Virus record (IMG/VR): IMGVR_UViG_3300042887_002031
Coordinates: 1-26,960 of that record
Direction: 5' to 3' (one strand)
From: a virus
Length of the DNA stretch: 26,960 bases
Shown: one piece after another, positions 2,158 through 26,897 of the stretch
How the letters are laid out: every line of letters begins with the position of its first letter
Numbering within the stretch: the stretch's first letter is position 1
Translations under genes and position numbers: made by a program
The notes under the pieces: model-generated
What the model was told of the DNA's origin: nothing
Database searches by the model: none
The model's input: the letters and a program-made list of their open reading frames with translations, nothing else

Positions 2158-3705
2158 TTAAGCGCCAAAATCTGCAGTATCAGGGCCATCGCCTTCTCCA
2201 TCTGCAGGAGCCCCAGCTTCTGCTTCAGCTGCTTCAAGTTTAATTTGCTCATTCATCTTTTCAACCTCATCTTCACTCTGATTTAGAATATTTGAGCGTA
2301 CCCACTTTTCACTGTAGTATTTGCCAATCTGACCTTCAATGCTTCCCAACATTTCAAGGCGCTCTTTCATAATTTCAAAGTCCTTGAGTTCGCTAAAGAA
2401 GTTGTCTTCAATATAGTCAATGCTACTGTTTTGACGTATATGATTCCAATCATCCTGCGTAATAATTCCTTTAAGAATCAATTGAACGCGCAGCATGTCA
2501 ATAAACAATGTACTAAACTTGCGGCGAAGACGGTTGATAAACTTTTGGAATTTAACTTCTTCACGGTTAATCTCAGTGCTGCGACCAACATTAAACATGG
2601 TTTCGCTCTCAAGACGGCTTGATGGAACATTTAGTGACTTGTAAAGATTTTTCTTAAAGTAGATAACATCTTCAATTTGACTAAGGTTTTCACCACCTGG
2701 TAGTGTTGTAATTTCGGTACCTCGGCCACCTTCACGACGCGGGAGCCAAAAGTCTTCAAGCATACTCATGGTCTTGCGATCATCACGTATTTCACCAGTG
2801 TTGGCGTCATACATCAGCTTGTTGCGGTACTTGGCCATAATGCCTTGTACATATTCTTCGGCTTTACCTTTTGGAAGGTTACCAATATCAATATAGAAAA
2901 TACGGCGCTCAGGTGCGCGCGCAATACGATAGATGACCAATGCATCTTCCATCATGCGCAGTTGATTCACTAGTTTAACGGCTTTGTGCAGGTGACTGAT
3001 ACTAACTTTTCCGTTTTCATCCAATACTCCACTTGGTACATATACAATAGCATTAGGATCAATCTTTAATCCGTTCATGCCGGCATTGTTATTAAAATCA
3101 TCAGTATACAAAAAGTATTCATCAGTGATTTCGCTCGTCTTGATGCCGGTAGCTTTATCAATACGAGTACTAACTTCTTTAATCTTTTTGATCTTTAGCG
3201 GATCAATTTGTTGAATCTCTTTGATGCCTTCCTTAGGCTTTTTGGGATCCATAATCATGTAAAAATATATACGCCCATCAATATACCAACGGCGAAACAG
3301 GTCAAAGCCTGTATAAGTAAAATCTAATAGTTGAAGAATATTAGAGAATTCTTCATGAATTTTTTTCTTAATATTATCAGCTAGTTCAACATTATCAAGA
3401 ATCAAATTGACCGGTGCGCCGTCACTATCATTTACAATTGCTCCATTTACAATTTCCGTGATGGCTGCATCGCATTCAGGTTGAACTGCACTAGCACGAT
3501 AGCGTAAGATAAGATCCTTTTCGTTGTTTAGACTACCACCATCAATATCAAGAATCTGACCGTAATAACCAGCAGCACTGTTTGCAGCACTAACATATGC
3601 TGCACCTTCATTGTCAACCGGTAAAGCAAAGCTTTGCAAAGAATCTTTATCTTCTGGTGCATCTTTACTTAAGCGCTTGGTTATTTCAAATCCAAATATT
3701 TTCAT
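2158..3705 (-). CDS. 20: Portal vertex protein, gp20-like
   Basis: Dodecameric portal through which DNA is packaged and to which the neck attaches. The length of 515 residues is close to T4 gp20 (524). The stretch GRSTEINREEVKFQKFI, the preceding clamp/stem region and the acidic Ala/Gly-rich C-terminus are typical of the family. I chose the ATG at 3703-3705 (MKIFGFEITKRL) over an open extension that adds a hydrophobic ten-residue leader; this ATG has the same TATATATA-AACTAT spacing as the plus-strand gene at 14822. A strong hairpin lies just upstream (3724-3755), separating the gene from tail-tube gene 19. High confidence from sequence and order. Confidence 0.95.
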   Translation of the reverse strand: MKIFGFEITKRLSKDAPEDKDSLQSFALPVDNEGAAYVSAANSAAGYYGQILDIDGGSLNNEKDLILRYRASAVQPECDAAITEIVNGAIVNDSDGAPVNLILDNVELADNIKKKIHEEFSNILQLLDFTYTGFDLFRRWYIDGRIYFYMIMDPKKPKEGIKEIQQIDPLKIKKIKEVSTRIDKATGIKTSEITDEYFLYTDDFNNNAGMNGLKIDPNAIVYVPSGVLDENGKVSISHLHKAVKLVNQLRMMEDALVIYRIARAPERRIFYIDIGNLPKGKAEEYVQGIMAKYRNKLMYDANTGEIRDDRKTMSMLEDFWLPRREGGRGTEITTLPGGENLSQIEDVIYFKKNLYKSLNVPSSRLESETMFNVGRSTEINREEVKFQKFINRLRRKFSTLFIDMLRVQLILKGIITQDDWNHIRQNSSIDYIEDNFFSELKDFEIMKERLEMLGSIEGQIGKYYSEKWVRSNILNQSEDEVEKMNEQIKLEAAEAEAGAPADGEGDGPDTADFGA

Positions 3706-6536: not shown

Positions 6537-7925
6537 TTATAAGCCGCTCCATTCTCGGTTTTGCTCTAGGGCTTCTTCATAGTATTGAGAGCTTTCTGGA
6601 GCATCTGACACATAGTTGTTTATGATTCCAAACAGTGGAACGTCTTCGTCCATCTCTCGTATCTTTTCGCTATACAAGAGTTGCTTAAGATCAACATTAC
6701 TTATACCGCCAAATGCATCAGTGCTAACAAACCATGAAAACATTACAAGATTCATTACCAAGTCATCGTGCGTACTTCCACGCGCCGCATAGCTGTCGCC
6801 CTTTGGCTCAAAGCTGCTAAGTTCTGAAATGGTGTCTATATCACATACTTCCAGCTTACCGCTTTCAATCAAGTCTTTAAGATTACTACAGCCAATTCGT
6901 TTAACTCTTTTTGTCATTACCACGCCAATGCCGTTGCTTTTGACCGCACTTGATACAAACATATTATCATATTCATATTCATAGTATACAGCATTACAAA
7001 CAACTTGTCCAGCATCATTATTTTCAATAACCACCATTGCATTGTTATATTGCTTGGCGGCACGCACTATCAATTCTGGATATATCAGTGGACTAATTAG
7101 ATTATCACGATAAGTACACACCGTCTTGAATGGCATGGTGCTAACATCGAAAACTGTAAATGTACTATAGTCCTGCCCTCTCCCTTTGCAAACATCAACC
7201 GTCATGATATACTCATGCCCTTCAACCGGATCATCATAATAGCGTATGCCATATTGGCGCTTGCTTGGCTCAACGCCTTTTAGACCTAGTAGTGCTTCAC
7301 TGCTAATTAGAGTAGCGCTGCTGCCAATAAAGTTAACTTCAAATTCTTGGGCAAACTGCAATTCGCTGCTGTTAGCAATTGTTTGACGTTTCCATGCTTC
7401 ATCCCGCCCAGGAACATCGCTCCATTTGATTGTGAATGGTTTAAATTCGCTTGTCTTTTGTACCGCGCCTTCCCACAAGCGATAAAACATATTGCCTACG
7501 CCATTAGGTGTACTTGTGATGATCACCTTGGTATCTTTACCAGATGAAATAACAGGATAGGTACTTGTATAAAACTCATTTGCATTTTGCACGAACGCAA
7601 ATTCGTCAAGAAAAATACAGTTATGACTAATTAATCCATTTGTATAATATGCATGAGTATCTTTAACATTTAGCAAATCATAAACCGATTCATTTGCAAT
7701 TTCATTTATACTTTCTATACAGATATTTGTGTAAAGTACATCTCCAATTTGTAAAAATCTTGCAGGTATATATGTTTCACCATCATCCATTAAAAGTTCA
7801 TGATCAGGCGTGCATTTGATACTCTTATCAGCAGTACATGTAATATATAGAAGACTATCTGAAACACCCTTATTTAGTATTCCATCAAATTGCTTAAACC
7901 CTTTATGCGTTAATACCTCAATCAT
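6537..7925 (-). CDS. 17: Large terminase C-half preceded by C-intein (IntC-gp17C)
   Basis: The 462-residue product begins with a 102-residue C-intein and continues with the C-terminal 360 residues of the packaging ATPase/nuclease. Intein block B (CTPDHELLMDDG), block F (VYDLLNVKDTHAYYTNG) and block G (LISHN followed by Cys+1) are present with intact catalytic residues. The extein opens with Walker B, CIFLDEFAFV, then the STPNG coupling motif and the RNase H-like nuclease with TVDVCKGRGQDYS, VVIENNDAGQ and STHDDLVMNL, holding the expected acidic triad. The start codon overlaps the upstream stop as ATGA, suggesting translational coupling. The product must be trans-spliced to the upstream half to make a normal terminase of about 530 residues. 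The identity of both parts is clear; splicing activity is inferred. Confidence 0.93.
   Translation of the reverse strand: MIEVLTHKGFKQFDGILNKGVSDSLLYITCTADKSIKCTPDHELLMDDGETYIPARFLQIGDVLYTNICIESINEIANESVYDLLNVKDTHAYYTNGLISHNCIFLDEFAFVQNANEFYTSTYPVISSGKDTKVIITSTPNGVGNMFYRLWEGAVQKTSEFKPFTIKWSDVPGRDEAWKRQTIANSSELQFAQEFEVNFIGSSATLISSEALLGLKGVEPSKRQYGIRYYDDPVEGHEYIMTVDVCKGRGQDYSTFTVFDVSTMPFKTVCTYRDNLISPLIYPELIVRAAKQYNNAMVVIENNDAGQVVCNAVYYEYEYDNMFVSSAVKSNGIGVVMTKRVKRIGCSNLKDLIESGKLEVCDIDTISELSSFEPKGDSYAARGSTHDDLVMNLVMFSWFVSTDAFGGISNVDLKQLLYSEKIREMDEDVPLFGIINNYVSDAPESSQYYEEALEQNREWSGL
7620..7925 (-). other. C-intein segment (IntC, 102 residues)
   Basis: Runs from the ATG to the terminal Asn just before Cys+1. 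It carries block B with the TxxH-type His (TPDH), block F and block G ending in His-Asn. Because block B lies here and not in the N-part, the split lies between blocks A and B, unlike the usual split between B and F. Confidence 0.92.
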
Positions 7926-8863
7926 TTCTTAGTTGTGTTAACCCATCCAGTTGGCGCTTCATGCGGAAAGTAATATCCTCTTTTGGATGCATCTGATGGA
8001 TCGGTGAAGTATTTCTTACCTTTATTCTTAGCAATCATTCCCTTTTTAGCAAGTGACATTTTATCTTTAGATTCTGCGCTACGTTTCATACCTCTGTGTT
8101 TTTCAGCAGTCTTACGTATCTTTTCTGGATTATGATTTATTTTTGAAACGTGGTCTGCGCTCTTTTTCATACCAGTCAATGCCTTGCTAATCTTTTCGCC
8201 AAACCCATCTGGCTTTGGCATACCTTTTAATTTTTGCGATACAATCCGGCCATTAGATTTTCTCGTTTCAGGTAAAGCTTCTATCATTTGGTTTCTTTTA
8301 TGATAAAATTCTTCGGCTGCGGATTGAATACCAGGCAATTCATACTGTATATTACCATTAGGATTGCCGCATTCATAAATTACTTTTACTCGCGCAGCGT
8401 GGGCATTGCAATCTTTAAGATAACCCAATTCATTTATTGCATCCTCTACGGTATGGAATATTCTTCCATCAGTGTGTGCTATTTTATAACCATTTCCAGT
8501 AGGCAGTCCGGTTTTTTGTTTACTTAATTTTTCACGAGTTTCTTTACTATGCGTCTTTCCGTAAAATCCATTATTTTCACCATGCAGTACACAAACGTTA
8601 CCTCCAACTGATAGATTATAAGTGTCTTCTCTTAAAGTAAAGTCACGATCAACAATTCTTTTTTCTTCAGCCTCAGCTTCTTCTTTGGTATTGTATACAG
8701 CTAAGATTTCTTTATTAAATTGGTCAACCCCATACTTCTCAACAGCTCTTCTTATCAGTTTACCCGATCCCATATATCCATCATCTATGTTACACGTAGA
8801 ATGATAACCTACATAGATTTTGCCATTAATTTTATTAGTGATTTTATAAACCGTATAATACAT
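7922..8863 (-). CDS. GIY-YIG homing endonuclease from internal start (alternative product)
   Basis: The last 313 codons of the terminase-N ORF can be made separately. An ATG at 8861-8863 (MYYTVYKITNKINGKIYVG) is preceded by GAGGAA three nt upstream and by an exact late-promoter octamer at 8887-8894. Residues of about 1-90 form the GIY-YIG nuclease: the VYKI and YVG strands, the Arg helix (GSGKLIRRAVEKYG), a Glu-bearing helix and a TYNLSVGG turn. Residues of about 95-118 (HSKETREKLSKQKTG) and 225-280 carry NUMOD3-like DNA-binding repeats, and the tail ends FPHEAPTGWVN as in other phage endonucleases. By analogy with T4 homing endonucleases it would cut intein-less gene 17 and drive spread of the element. 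Independent expression is inferred from the embedded signals. Confidence 0.72.
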   Translation of the reverse strand: MYYTVYKITNKINGKIYVGYHSTCNIDDGYMGSGKLIRRAVEKYGVDQFNKEILAVYNTKEEAEAEEKRIVDRDFTLREDTYNLSVGGNVCVLHGENNGFYGKTHSKETREKLSKQKTGLPTGNGYKIAHTDGRIFHTVEDAINELGYLKDCNAHAARVKVIYECGNPNGNIQYELPGIQSAAEEFYHKRNQMIEALPETRKSNGRIVSQKLKGMPKPDGFGEKISKALTGMKKSADHVSKINHNPEKIRKTAEKHRGMKRSAESKDKMSLAKKGMIAKNKGKKYFTDPSDASKRGYYFPHEAPTGWVNTTKK

Positions 8864-9475
8864 ATGTTCCTCGATGAGTTTACTTTTATTTATATAATCA
8901 TCTATTTTAACATAGTAAATTGCATCATTTTCATATATGCAAATTTTGGTATCACCTGTCACACAATTCATACTCAAGCCTCGAATGCTACTACCGCTAG
9001 TTGCCGCTGCAATAATTTGGCTGTTGTTGCTAAACTTGATACTACCTTTGTTCAATACCTTACACCCAGGCTGCAGGAAGAATGGCAGGTTCTCCAACAT
9101 TAGTGTAAGGCGGCTCAACATCTCACGTGCAGTTGCACCTTTGTTGGCAAGTATACCAATAGTCTTGTCAGGATTAAAGATGACATAGTGAAGGAGCCAT
9201 GCCACACTTGTTATACTTTTACCACTTTGACGACATGCTAATACTATATTGAAACGGTTATCACTAAAATGTTTTACCATATTTTCTTGATAACCACGCA
9301 GCTTAAAAGGAACAAGCCCATGATCCAAGTGAATAACCTTTACATACTGCTCACAAAAATAACCAACATCTGCCATGCAGCGCTGATATTCAACTATCTC
9401 ATGAGCGGTAAAGTTTTGCTGCACACCATCGCCCTTCACGTGTGGGTTGCCATTATAGTTAAGTCCAGAATTCAT
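7922..9475 (-). CDS. 17: Large terminase N-half + N-intein + GIY-YIG endonuclease fusion
   Basis: A 517-residue composite. Residues 1-170 are the N-terminal half of the large terminase ATPase, with the adenine-binding and Walker A region (ACRQSGKS at about 80-87) and a normal end at SSIRGLSMN just before Walker B. Residue 171 is Cys1 of an intein whose block A reads CVTGDTKICIYEND. After about 27-34 intein residues the frame runs straight into a GIY-YIG homing endonuclease with NUMOD3-like repeats and stops at ATGA, overlapping the C-half gene. I chose ATG 9473-9475 (MNSGLNYNGNP) because the 11-codon upstream extension would need a TTG start. TATAAATA lies about 58 nt upstream. Packaging function needs trans-splicing with the next ORF. 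Confidence 0.92.
   Translation of the reverse strand: MNSGLNYNGNPHVKGDGVQQNFTAHEIVEYQRCMADVGYFCEQYVKVIHLDHGLVPFKLRGYQENMVKHFSDNRFNIVLACRQSGKSITSVAWLLHYVIFNPDKTIGILANKGATAREMLSRLTLMLENLPFFLQPGCKVLNKGSIKFSNNSQIIAAATSGSSIRGLSMNCVTGDTKICIYENDAIYYVKIDDYINKSKLIEEHMYYTVYKITNKINGKIYVGYHSTCNIDDGYMGSGKLIRRAVEKYGVDQFNKEILAVYNTKEEAEAEEKRIVDRDFTLREDTYNLSVGGNVCVLHGENNGFYGKTHSKETREKLSKQKTGLPTGNGYKIAHTDGRIFHTVEDAINELGYLKDCNAHAARVKVIYECGNPNGNIQYELPGIQSAAEEFYHKRNQMIEALPETRKSNGRIVSQKLKGMPKPDGFGEKISKALTGMKKSADHVSKINHNPEKIRKTAEKHRGMKRSAESKDKMSLAKKGMIAKNKGKKYFTDPSDASKRGYYFPHEAPTGWVNTTKK
8884..8965 (-). other. N-intein segment (IntN, about 27 residues)
   Basis: Starts at Cys1 (codon 8963-8965) right after extein Asn170. 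Block A is CVTGDTKICI; the piece ends near VKIDDYINK, before the linker leading to the GIY-YIG domain. Its 3' boundary is approximate. The length resembles the 25-residue IntN of the atypically split AceL-TerL intein. Confidence 0.85.
8887..8894 (-). promoter_or_regulatory. Late promoter box inside N-intein coding sequence, driving the endonuclease
   Basis: Exact TATAAATA formed by the codons for Tyr-Ile-Asn-Lys of IntN, 23 nt before the internal ATG at 8863. The intervening leader contains GAGGAA (8867-8872). The combination gives the endonuclease its own transcription and translation start. Confidence 0.65.
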
Positions 9476-24382: not shown

Positions 24383-25060
24383 TTATTTTAAAGTGTCTTG
24401 CAATGATGCAGAATAGGCACACCATTCTGCATCATACTTAAGGTCAGATTTTATACCAAGCCAAGGGCCGCCTTCAGTAAAATGTAATGCCTTTGGTTTC
24501 TTTTCAGATGTTTCGGTATACCAGCCGACTAGCCAATTCCACTCATATGAAATTTCACCAATGTCAGAGTCGTCTAACCATTGGAATCGATGTAAGAAAC
24601 TAGCACTCGCAGAGTTTAGCAAATCACCATCAAGAATTTTATTTTTAGGGTGAGTATTGTTCCATAAGATCAAGCTACTCCAATTTTTCCTAGGATAAAC
24701 ACTTTGAGGTTTATCATTCATCTTTACAGCATTGCATGGAGTATAGTCATGCTTTACAACTTGCACTGCATATTGAGGATCGCATTGATCTATTAGCTTT
24801 TGAATATCTTCTAGGAATAAAAAGTCGCTGTCACAAAATATACTCCATCCTTTGTAATCATTTATGAATGGCACATAAAAGCGTGCATATGTGAAAGGAG
24901 TTGATGCAAGCGGATCGCATGGGCGGTCATAGCCAACTATAGTATCAGAGTTAATTTTACTTATGGCGATAGCATTAGAACTGCTATTCTTAATGATGGA
25001 ATGTTTGCATACTTGATATGCAATGTCCTGTGAGTCGTCATATCCGATGTGTATGTTCAT
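24383..25060 (-). CDS. Glycosyltransferase, GT8-like
   Basis: 225 residues. The N-terminus MNIHIGYDDSQDIAYQVCKH is the nucleotide-sugar-binding start seen in GT-A family-8-like enzymes, and WSIFCDSDFLFLEDI holds the DxD metal-binding motif (Asp-Ser-Asp). Then come VVKHDYTPCNAVKMNDK and YPRKNWSSLILWN, followed by SASASFLHRFQWL, a pattern shared by a bacterial and phage glycosyltransferase group. It would transfer a sugar from a nucleotide donor; the acceptor (virion protein, DNA or host glycan) is not indicated. It begins 3 nt after the GT29-like gene and is probably cotranscribed with it. No membrane segment, so it is cytoplasmic. Confidence 0.85.
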   Translation of the reverse strand: MNIHIGYDDSQDIAYQVCKHSIIKNSSSNAIAISKINSDTIVGYDRPCDPLASTPFTYARFYVPFINDYKGWSIFCDSDFLFLEDIQKLIDQCDPQYAVQVVKHDYTPCNAVKMNDKPQSVYPRKNWSSLILWNNTHPKNKILDGDLLNSASASFLHRFQWLDDSDIGEISYEWNWLVGWYTETSEKKPKALHFTEGGPWLGIKSDLKYDAEWCAYSASLQDTLK

Positions 25061-25063
25061 ATT

Positions 25064-25615
25064 TTAATATAATTGGGTAATAGTACCAGATTTAATTAAA
25101 GTTTTATAATAAAGAACTTGTTGAAAAACTGGAGTTGTAAAATTACTAGAATCTTTTTTAACATTATCAATACTTATATTACCATTTTCATACAAGTCAA
25201 ATCCACATACATTTATCTTATGAGAAGGATATCTCAATAACGCTAACAATATAGAACTGATTCCAGCATCTGGCATATATGAATTGTTTAAATTTGCAAC
25301 ATTACCAAAATACTTTTTAATGTAAGACATTTCATTTTCATTTATCATTTTTAAAATTAAATTAAACTGTTCATAGCATTCAGCATCATCTGAAGATATC
25401 CAAATGTCTAAGTTTTTTAACTCGTCAATATGATTAGATAATTTATCAGGAGACTGTGTTGAAAAGATATGCGTCTTAAGTCCAATGACATCATGGTTGT
25501 TGTCATTTGGTAAATGATTAACTCTTATAATAATGTCATGTGAATCTATAAGAGAACCTATTTTATGAGATAACAGTGAACTGCCTTTTGCAACAATACA
25601 TATGCGGCTATTCAT
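25064..25615 (-). CDS. Sialyltransferase-like (GT29-type) protein
   Basis: 183 residues. The N-terminal segment ICIVAKGSSLL, then G-LIDSHDIIIRVNHLP corresponds to sialylmotif L of family GT29 (nucleotide-sugar-binding: G-S-G/S ... G-ID-HD-V-R-N), and PDAGISSILLALLRYP followed by INVCGFDLY corresponds to motif S (P-x-T/A-G ... YGFD). Family members use CMP-sialic acid. This protein is short and lacks a membrane anchor, so it is a soluble cytoplasmic version. The substrate is uncertain and may be another activated sugar. It overlaps the asparagine-synthetase-like gene by 8 nt. The DNA is very AT-rich. Confidence 0.72.
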   Translation of the reverse strand: MNSRICIVAKGSSLLSHKIGSLIDSHDIIIRVNHLPNDNNHDVIGLKTHIFSTQSPDKLSNHIDELKNLDIWISSDDAECYEQFNLILKMINENEMSYIKKYFGNVANLNNSYMPDAGISSILLALLRYPSHKINVCGFDLYENGNISIDNVKKDSSNFTTPVFQQVLYYKTLIKSGTITQLY

Positions 25616-26897
25616 GTTGCGGTAAAATAAAATTTTGTTCTATTTCAGTATAAACGTTATGCGAACAACTCATTCCTACTTTTTTACTGTTAGTAATCAA
25701 GTTATTAATATGTAAATATTCCGTTATAACTGATTTATATTTTTGAGTTTTTAGCTCAGGAGATAAATTTAAAAATTCCTGAACAAAAATTTTATCTAAA
25801 AATGGATATCTTAATTGCACTCCATATGCACCAACTATATATTCAAATTCATTGCAAAAATGCTGAGTAATGTAAGAATAAAAATGAAATGGTTTTTGTA
25901 AATTATAAAAATACACGCCATCTTTTTTATCATTTGACATTATTGCATCAGCACCACTTCCTGAAATAATAACATCATACCCATCTTTTTTAATAACAGA
26001 TACCAATTTAGAAAGCATAAAAACTACAACATCATGTTTATAATTTTCAAAATCTTCCATATTGTTTGAAATGTTTTTAAATTCTATCAAATCATTAACA
26101 CTTTTATTTTTGTAATAGTCAATAATTTTATACGACATGTTTTGGTCTTCACACTTTTTAAGTCTGTCGTCCATTACAATTTCATTTTCTCTATTGTTTT
26201 TGACGTAATAAAAACAGTTTTCTTTTTTATTATTTAACAAAAACCATTGAAAAATTGCTCCACTATCATGACCTGAACTTAATGGTATTGCACATTTTTC
26301 ATTGCATCGTATTTTTATAGCATTTTCTAAAGCAGCGATACAATCATCGTATGTAGTTTTATATTCTTTTAAGTTAAATTTGCTATGGCTATATTCTTTT
26401 ATTGATAAGTCATTTAACTTTAATTCTATAAAAGAAGAATCTTTTACTCTAATTGGATTAGCAAAACCCAAAAGTTTTAATTCAGACGCATACGTGGCAA
26501 TTCCAACATTTCCATTTTCTATACTATAAAATAACGGTTTAGTTGAAAAAATATCGCTATATAGATAAATAACTTCATTGGTTTTATCCATAAGCATTAT
26601 TGCATATTCGCCGTTTATATTTTCAACGAAAGTCTTTCCATACTTTTCATATAAAGATATTACCAGTGATGTCTGATCGTCCGAAGTAGGACTATAAATT
26701 TGACCATCAAATAAAACAGTTATATTATTATGATTTATTGGTTGAGTTATACATTTTTTTGATACATCCAATAAATTATGTATCATATTAAATCCATTTA
26801 CCGTACATATATTTGTAATATCCGGTCCTCTTTTGGCGGAGAAAAAATTTAAATTTTCTACATTTAAATCTTTATCAGTAAATATAAAACTAGACAT
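25608..26897 (-). CDS. Asparagine-synthetase-like amidotransferase, degenerate glutaminase site
   Basis: 429 residues with the two domains of AsnB-type enzymes. The N-terminal glutaminase-like fold is recognised by AKRGPD near residue 22, VLFDGQIYS and NGEYAIMLMD, but the protein begins Met-Ser-Ser, so the catalytic Cys2 is absent. The C-terminal ATP-pyrophosphatase domain has the P-loop LSSGHDSGA, IISGSGADAI (family: SGEGADE) and LRYPFLDKIF. Without Cys2 it cannot use glutamine in the standard way and may use free ammonia or activate a carboxylate by adenylation. The setting with two glycosyltransferases suggests amidation of a sugar acid or peptide in glycan synthesis. AT-rich DNA. Shorter than bacterial AsnB (about 550). 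Confidence 0.82.
   Translation of the reverse strand: MSSFIFTDKDLNVENLNFFSAKRGPDITNICTVNGFNMIHNLLDVSKKCITQPINHNNITVLFDGQIYSPTSDDQTSLVISLYEKYGKTFVENINGEYAIMLMDKTNEVIYLYSDIFSTKPLFYSIENGNVGIATYASELKLLGFANPIRVKDSSFIELKLNDLSIKEYSHSKFNLKEYKTTYDDCIAALENAIKIRCNEKCAIPLSSGHDSGAIFQWFLLNNKKENCFYYVKNNRENEIVMDDRLKKCEDQNMSYKIIDYYKNKSVNDLIEFKNISNNMEDFENYKHDVVVFMLSKLVSVIKKDGYDVIISGSGADAIMSNDKKDGVYFYNLQKPFHFYSYITQHFCNEFEYIVGAYGVQLRYPFLDKIFVQEFLNLSPELKTQKYKSVITEYLHINNLITNSKKVGMSCSHNVYTEIEQNFILPQHE

What the first reader, a model, noticed from the sequence alone, without database searches (positions are those of the whole stretch)
6537..9475. Gene 17 is fractured by an atypically split intein with intact splice residues
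Seen: the terminase N-half ends SSIRGLSMN and continues CVTGDTKICI (intein Cys1, block A). After a stop, the next ORF starts with a 102-residue piece holding block B (TPDH), block F and LISHN-Cys+1, then resumes the terminase at Walker B (CIFLDEFAFV). The N-piece holds block A only (about 27 residues). Known: most natural split inteins break between blocks B and F; a rare class with a very short IntN includes the metagenomic AceL-TerL intein (about 25 + 104 residues), also in a phage terminase. Inference: this is a new member of that class and should trans-splice to a terminase of about 530 residues.
Basis: partly seen in the sequence, partly recalled or inferred. Interest (0 to 1): 0.9.

Follow-up and report, generated by a model that had tools for sequence, protein, structure and literature searches.

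The report
Terminase split by endonuclease-carrying intein
A phage's DNA-packaging motor protein is encoded in two pieces that a split self-splicing protein element should join, and a DNA-cutting gene that probably spreads the element sits exactly at the split, welded to the first piece.

Summary
On the minus strand the T4-type terminase (TerL) is broken before Walker B by an atypically split intein with Cys1, TPDH, SHN and Cys+1; the joined exteins would be 530 aa. There is no short free IntN: after 34 residues the same ORF runs on, in frame, into a 313-aa GIY-YIG/NUMOD3 homing endonuclease with its own ATG. Its stop overlaps the IntC start as ATGA. The IntC's closest solved relative, by sequence and predicted fold, is Cat, an atypically split intein. 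Three diverged contigs keep the arrangement; IntN, endonuclease and IntC show purifying selection; the nearest intein-free relative has Val where the window has Cys+1.
Relatives put it in a wider family: 77 TerL intein clusters, mostly split, with inserts (where present) after about 35 intein residues, not at the usual endonuclease site. In Campylobacter phage F341 the halves lie on opposite strands about 24 kb apart, so any joining there must occur in trans. In three contigs, and a fourth cut by its end, the endonuclease is in the +1 frame of an uninterrupted intein ORF.
Splicing is inferred, not shown.

The parts
8966..9475 (-). TerL N-extein, 170 aa from ATG, containing Walker A
   Evidence: Pfam Terminase_6N 1.3e-6
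8864..8965 (-). IntN, 34 residues (Cys1, CVTGDTKICI), up to the endonuclease Met
   Evidence: 40% identical over 30 residues to the start of a 126-aa contiguous mini-intein at the same TerL site in L164
8869..8872 (-). GAGG Shine-Dalgarno-like site 5 nt before the endonuclease ATG
   Evidence: same in L006-L008; not in L009
7922..8863 (-). GIY-YIG/NUMOD3 homing endonuclease, 313 aa, in frame with IntN, own ATG at 8863
   Evidence: Pfam GIY-YIG 1.2e-5, SegE_GIY-YIG 6e-7, NUMOD3 2.8e-8 on this stretch alone
7922..7925 (-). ATGA overlap: stop of TerL-N/IntN/endonuclease ORF and start of IntC ORF
   Evidence: 4-nt overlap also in L007, L008, L009, L145, L209
7620..7925 (-). IntC, 102 residues (TPDH, VYDLLNV, LISHN)
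   Evidence: PDB CatC 2e-11; model pLDDT 80.6, lowest Foldseek E-values Cat then VidaL
6537..7619 (-). TerL C-extein, 360 aa, starting at Cys+1 and Walker B (CIFLDEFAFV)
   Evidence: Pfam Terminase_6N 4.2e-12 and Terminase_6C 8e-15

Best explanation
It is a mobile, atypically split intein inserted just before Walker B of a T4-type terminase, with a GIY-YIG homing endonuclease gene placed at the split. Shown by sequence: one ORF encodes TerL-N + IntN + endonuclease; a second, starting inside the ATGA stop, encodes IntC + TerL-C. Inferred: ribosomes finishing the first ORF re-initiate at the overlapping ATG, giving coupled amounts of the two precursors; IntN docks on IntC and trans-splices the exteins into a 530-aa terminase, releasing the endonuclease still attached to IntN; the internal GAGG/ATG also lets the endonuclease be made alone. 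The endonuclease cuts intein-free TerL alleles in co-infecting phages, and repair copies intein, endonuclease and the Cys+1 codon. The HINT part protects the terminase and the endonuclease spreads the unit.
For: Catalytic residues present and Cat-type fold. Same layout in L007-L009. pN/pS below 1 for IntN (0.00-0.35), endonuclease (0.06-0.21) and IntC (0.17-0.27) against L007, L008, L009. The closest intein-free relative (94.3% over 300 nt) reads AAT|GTT where the window reads AAT|intein|TGT: precise insertion with Cys at +1. ATGA overlap kept in five fused relatives down to 39-47% endonuclease identity. A contiguous endonuclease-free 126-aa homologue at the same site shows where the endonuclease entered, at about its residue 30. 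F341 halves on opposite strands. Endonucleases track the insertion site: of 65 insert sequences compared, 53 had a hit below 90% identity and for 46 the best was at the same site.
Against: No splicing, expression or homing data. IntC scores 33.1 bits against Pfam Intein_splicing, below its 35.8 cut-off. The strong Shine-Dalgarno before the endonuclease ATG is absent in L009, so independent endonuclease synthesis may not be general. In-frame fusion is seen in 9 of 43 split clusters with an insert ORF, no more than the third expected by chance, so fusion itself may be incidental. Of the 14 uninterrupted sites, 7 have Val, 6 Cys and 1 Leu at +1, so Cys there is not found only with the intein.
Confidence: 0.85

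Rival explanations
1. A programmed -1 frameshift at the ATGA overlap yields one long precursor and the intein, with a large endonuclease insert, splices in cis.
For: The ORFs overlap; L009 has a six-A run just before its stop, which could slip; related contiguous inteins exist (L138, L164).
Against: The window, L007 and L008 have AAGAAA there and no canonical slippery heptamer by inspection. Among 31 overlapping separate-insert instances, frame offsets are 15 versus 16, so no fixed shift direction. In F341 the halves are on opposite strands.
Confidence: 0.06
2. The intein is dead and the two terminase pieces work as a non-covalent complex, as reported for a phage ribonucleotide reductase in pieces (cited in a passage of PMC10448857).
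For: Splicing not demonstrated.
Against: Catalytic residues kept and both halves under purifying selection; Cys+1 in L007-L009 while the nearest intein-free relative has Val.
Confidence: 0.07
3. Pseudogene or assembly artefact.
For: Single fragmentary virus record of 26,960 b.
Against: L007-L009 have diverged sequence and the same ORF layout; purifying selection.
Confidence: 0.01

Closest known systems
AceL-TerL, GOS-TerL and Cat (atypically split terminase inteins)
   Same: TerL host, short IntN / long IntC (34/102 here; 25/104, 37/115, 30/104 in PMC11766414, passages), Cys1 and Cys+1 as in AceL-TerL, Cat has the lowest E-value by sequence and fold
   Different: IntN has no free end here; it continues in frame into an endonuclease. 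Insertion site and gene surroundings of AceL/GOS not compared.
Fractured genes with split inteins (Dassa 2009, seen only as a citation, paper not held; AceL NrdHF with intervening GIY-YIG, PMC7891396, passages)
   Same: Gene halves with IntN/IntC and a GIY-YIG gene between
   Different: AceL NrdHF is class 3 and split at the usual place (98 + 48 aa); here the split is after 34 residues and the endonuclease is fused to IntN.
VidaL (atypically split intein)
   Same: Second-lowest Foldseek E-value; also a PDB sequence hit (E 0.0037, after Pho RadA)
   Different: Split earlier (IntN 16 aa, PMC13014065, passages).
Endonuclease-bearing contiguous inteins
   Same: HINT domain plus homing endonuclease
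   Different: PMC6801210 (passages) states that all endonuclease domains within inteins sit at one conserved site (C35); here the endonuclease sits after 34 residues.
Shigella phage JK32, Shewanella phage Thanatos-2, Vibrio phages K469 and 1.244.A (public records)
   Same: TerL-N + IntN + endonuclease in one ORF, IntC + TerL-C in the next
   Different: Other TerL sites; JK32 and Thanatos-2 match TnsA-like nuclease in Pfam; annotated as terminase, coil-containing or hypothetical protein.

Membership tests
Atypically split intein (AceL/GOS-TerL class) | Split near the N-end with IntN of 15-37 aa (range from PMC13014065, passages) | tested here: met
   34 residues before the endonuclease Met; but IntN is not a free fragment
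Atypically split intein (AceL/GOS-TerL class) | Catalytic residues: Cys1, TxxH, C-terminal His-Asn, Cys/Ser/Thr+1 | tested here: met
   CVTGDT, TPDH, LISHN|C
Atypically split intein (AceL/GOS-TerL class) | HINT fold | tested here: met
   IntC model pLDDT 80.6, pTM 0.71; Cat TMq 0.78, VidaL 0.77, gp41-1 (6riz) 0.79
Atypically split intein (AceL/GOS-TerL class) | Trans-splicing activity | not testable with these tools
   needs expression
Atypically split intein (AceL/GOS-TerL class) | Same TerL insertion site as AceL-TerL | not tested
   AceL-TerL sequence and paper not seen
Fractured-gene arrangement | Endonuclease gene between the two halves | tested here: met
Fractured-gene arrangement | Endonuclease as its own separate ORF (definition recalled) | tested here: not met
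   no stop between IntN and endonuclease; internal ATG only
GIY-YIG homing endonuclease | GIY-YIG domain plus NUMOD3 motif | tested here: met
   Pfam GIY-YIG, SegE_GIY-YIG, NUMOD3 above cut-offs
GIY-YIG homing endonuclease | Cuts the intein-free site | not testable with these tools
   site-specific kinship is indirect support
Intein with endonuclease at the canonical site | Endonuclease at the C35 site of the HINT fold | tested here: not met
   endonuclease after residue 34; TPDH lies downstream in IntC

The most novel reading that the evidence does not exclude
Phage terminase inteins form a lineage in which homing endonucleases of several families repeatedly entered at an N-terminal site (after about 35 residues), where a paper seen here says intein endonucleases are not found. 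The unit has solved the clash by many reading-frame routes: fracture with the endonuclease fused to IntN (the window), a separate endonuclease ORF, halves moved to opposite strands, endonuclease loss with re-fusion to a cis intein (L138 versus L145), and an endonuclease gene in the +1 frame of an uninterrupted intein ORF (L093, L211, L220; L212 cut by its contig end). Atypical split sites would then be fossils of endonuclease entry.
Probability: 0.65. Interest if true: 0.8.

Novelty: new variant of a known kind. Interest (0 to 1): 0.62.

Why it matters
It offers an explanation for why some natural inteins are split so close to their N-end: an endonuclease sits there. That bears on the stated puzzle of why intein endonucleases use one site (PMC6801210, passages) and makes it testable, because contiguous, remnant, fused, separate and overlapping states exist at homologous TerL sites. 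It also gives many candidate atypically split inteins for protein ligation, including terminases with two or three intein sites that would need mutually orthogonal pairs, and it corrects annotation of terminases in cultured phages.

Tried and rejected
Frameshift model: not favoured, because overlap frames vary and F341 halves are on opposite strands; L009's A-run keeps it alive for that contig. Chance in-frame fusion: not rejected (9 of 43 clusters). Constraint on the amino acids of the intein frame in the +1-overlap cases: the substitution pattern (third-position share 0.48 and 0.42 versus 0.37-0.66 in 11 single-coding control pairs) shows no extra constraint; only stop avoidance stands out. 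AlphaFold of the L164 contiguous mini-intein failed (pLDDT 45.8, three sequences) and is not used. Equating the insertion point with the 'N35' loop of PMC6801210: not claimed; from memory of NpuDnaE the point lies a few residues before that loop, near the S2 split site. Rfam at gathering thresholds: none in the window. None of the ten paper searches showed in its listing, and none of the passages I read showed, an IntN fused in frame to an endonuclease; I read passages only, and most subscription papers are outside the library.

Survey limits: loci were fetched by similarity to IntC seeds, so proportions are not prevalences. From 137 IntC domain hits in 220 held loci, twelve repeat loci were skipped and identical C-terminal 60-mers collapsed, leaving 92. 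Four rows were dropped (three whose flanks were not recognised as TerL, one fragment), leaving 88 instances in 77 clusters at 90%. Site labels were partly set by hand, and one Cys1 (L155 Walker A) was placed three residues early. 'ORF between' means an ORF of 90 aa or more, not a proven endonuclease: which scanned 40 insert ORFs, 12 match GIY-YIG, 9 SegE_GIY-YIG, 6 MTES_1575, 3 TnsA-like and 2 HNH (counts overlap; the table is per family, so I cannot say which members match nothing).
Full report
What is there. The window is a 26,960-b virus record with T4-type structural genes. On the minus strand one ORF (ATG 9475 to stop 7922) encodes 170 aa of terminase, 34 aa of intein beginning CVTGDTKICI, and, without a stop, a 313-aa protein with GIY-YIG, SegE and NUMOD3 matches. 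Its stop TGA lies inside ATGA at 7922-7925, whose ATG starts the second ORF: 102 aa of intein ending LISHN and 360 aa of terminase beginning CIFLDEFAFV. The endonuclease has its own ATG at 8863 with GAGG 5 nt upstream.

It is an intein. phmmer against PDB gives the engineered consensus CatC at 2e-11, then Pho RadA (4.7e-5) and VidaL (0.0037). NCBIfam intein_Cterm is above its cut-off (17 versus 15.6 bits); Pfam Intein_splicing is slightly below its own (33.1 versus 35.8). The IntC model (18 sequences, pLDDT 80.6, pTM 0.71) has its lowest Foldseek E-values with Cat (TMq 0.78) and VidaL (0.77), both atypically split; other inteins follow, gp41-1 with TMq up to 0.79.

It is real and maintained. 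L006 is identical to the window over 8,468 nt and counts as the same virus. Three diverged contigs carry the same layout: L007 and L008 (IntC 92-93%, endonuclease 96%) and L009 (75% and 74%). pN/pS against L007, L008 and L009 is 0.07, 0.00 and 0.35 for IntN, 0.06, 0.07 and 0.21 for the endonuclease, and 0.27, 0.17 and 0.24 for IntC; some synonymous counts are small or near saturation. The ATGA overlap is kept in L007-L009 and in the more distant L209 and L145, whose endonucleases are 47% and 39% identical to the window's.

It moves precisely. Joining 150 nt of each flank finds 14 distinct uninterrupted relatives. The closest (L218, 94.3% over 300 nt) has GTT (Val) at the +1 codon where the window has TGT (Cys); in all, 7 have Val, 6 Cys and 1 Leu. 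At the same site the related L164 has a contiguous 126-aa mini-intein without endonuclease; the window's IntN matches its residues 1-30 (40%) and IntC its residues 30-126 (43%), which places the endonuclease at about residue 30.

Wider family. Homologous IntCs are found in 94 of 50,697 phage records. Among held loci, 88 TerL IntC instances form 77 clusters: 76 at four TerL sites (Walker A; before Walker B, the window's; within Walker B; a later site, often QE(F/M)E|C) and one, L144, between the two Walker B sites. Classes by cluster: split with an ORF of 90 aa or more between halves, 34; split with IntN fused to a downstream domain, 9; split with nothing that long between, 12; contiguous without insert, 7; contiguous with the endonuclease in another frame, 3 plus 1 cut by a contig end; contiguous with an in-frame endonuclease remnant, 1; IntN not in the locus, 9; unpaired, 1. 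In unfused split cases the IntN from Cys1 to stop is 28-63 aa (median 35, 51 instances). In 38 of 38 instances with a separate ORF between, the chosen IntC start lies within -19 to +46 nt of that ORF's end, with both frame offsets (15 and 16) among the 31 that overlap. This fits translational coupling and not one fixed frameshift. Of 11 fused instances (L006 included), 8 overlap by 4-20 nt and 3 showed gaps of 37-116 nt; for two of these, K469 and 1.244.A, the annotated starts do overlap, by 14 and 11 nt. The third is L010, whose HNH-like insert is broken into pieces.

Evidence that a member acts in trans. In Campylobacter phage F341 (circular, 131,680 b) the TerL N-half ending in a 31-aa IntN is at 108149-108865 on the minus strand, and a 100-aa IntC + TerL-C at 1489-2817 on the plus strand, about 24.3 kb away. 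Frameshifting cannot join these; joining there, if it happens, is in trans.

Steps between states. L138 and L145 are 80-82% identical in DNA; L138 lacks about 0.8 kb of the endonuclease and reads as one 233-aa intein, while L145 is split and fused. In L093, L211 and L220 the intein ORF runs through while the nuclease gene (HNH-like or Vsr-like, judged by eye) is in the +1 frame; L212 shows the same but is cut by its contig end before IntN. The intein frame has 0 stops over 251, 271, 282 and 128 codons where 20,000 synonymous shuffles each average 13.2, 17.4, 15.4 and 9.2 and none reaches zero. Eighteen separate insert ORFs have 12-37 and 28-79 stops in their two other frames. The amino acids of that frame show no further constraint.

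Endonuclease and site. Of 65 insert sequences, 53 had a hit below 90% identity and for 46 the best such hit is at the same TerL site; 5 of the other 7 involve an unlabelled site. At the window's site the window's GIY-YIG part (84-87 residues) is 49-54% identical to eight separate GIY-YIG inserts, and its C-terminal stretch is 54-57% identical to the HNH-like inserts of L211 and L093: the nuclease swaps while the putative DNA-binding module stays.

Known versus new. Atypically split TerL inteins (AceL, GOS, Cat: PMC11766414, passages) and fractured genes with a GIY-YIG gene between intein halves (AceL NrdHF: PMC7891396, passages) are known. PMC6801210 (passages) says all endonuclease domains within inteins sit at one conserved site and argues that insertion at the symmetry-related N-terminal site would clash with the exteins. 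The window and its relatives place the endonuclease in the N-terminal part, near although not certainly at that site, and mostly in split form, as that argument would predict. The IBB_35 paper (PMC3322345, passages) read its terminase as broken by an intein and an intron; the sequence suggests three inteins there, two with separate halves, and the last IntC is itself frame-broken in that record. I file the window as a new variant: a TerL split intein whose IntN is fused in frame to its homing endonuclease. Splicing, coupling and homing are inferred.

Noticed in passing
L211 2157-4985 with 2755-3567; L093 1378-4116 with 1979-2731; L220 2226-5096 with 2614-3459; L212 2-2569 with 3-386: Homing endonuclease gene in the +1 frame of an uninterrupted terminase-intein ORF (L212 cut by its contig end); no stop in the intein frame, 0 of 20,000 synonymous shuffles match.
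   Followed up: partly
L221 1489-2817 and L223 1650-2366 (Campylobacter phage F341): Terminase halves with matching IntN (31 aa) and IntC (100 aa) on opposite strands about 24 kb apart.
   Followed up: yes
L008 2442-6403; L009 798-5315; L099 1-4917; L144 161-4568; L145 3-4106; L155 1020-4523: Terminases with two or three intein sites with separate halves, so three or more polypeptides would have to be joined by distinct intein pairs (in L145 the Walker A IntN is not in the locus).
   Followed up: partly
L138 881-2464 versus L145 3-2560: Loss of about 0.8 kb of endonuclease appears to have turned a split intein into a contiguous 233-aa one.
   Followed up: yes
L099 (Campylobacter phage IBB_35): Published as intein plus intron in the terminase; sequence suggests three inteins, two with separate halves, one IntC frame-broken.
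   Followed up: partly
window 20008-22359 (-): 783-aa protein with DUF285 repeats (Pfam 2.2e-74, seven stretches).
   Followed up: no
window 24383-26897 (-): Cluster of a glutamine-amidotransferase/asparagine-synthase-like protein, a GT29 sialyltransferase-like protein and a weak GT8 match at the window edge.
   Followed up: no
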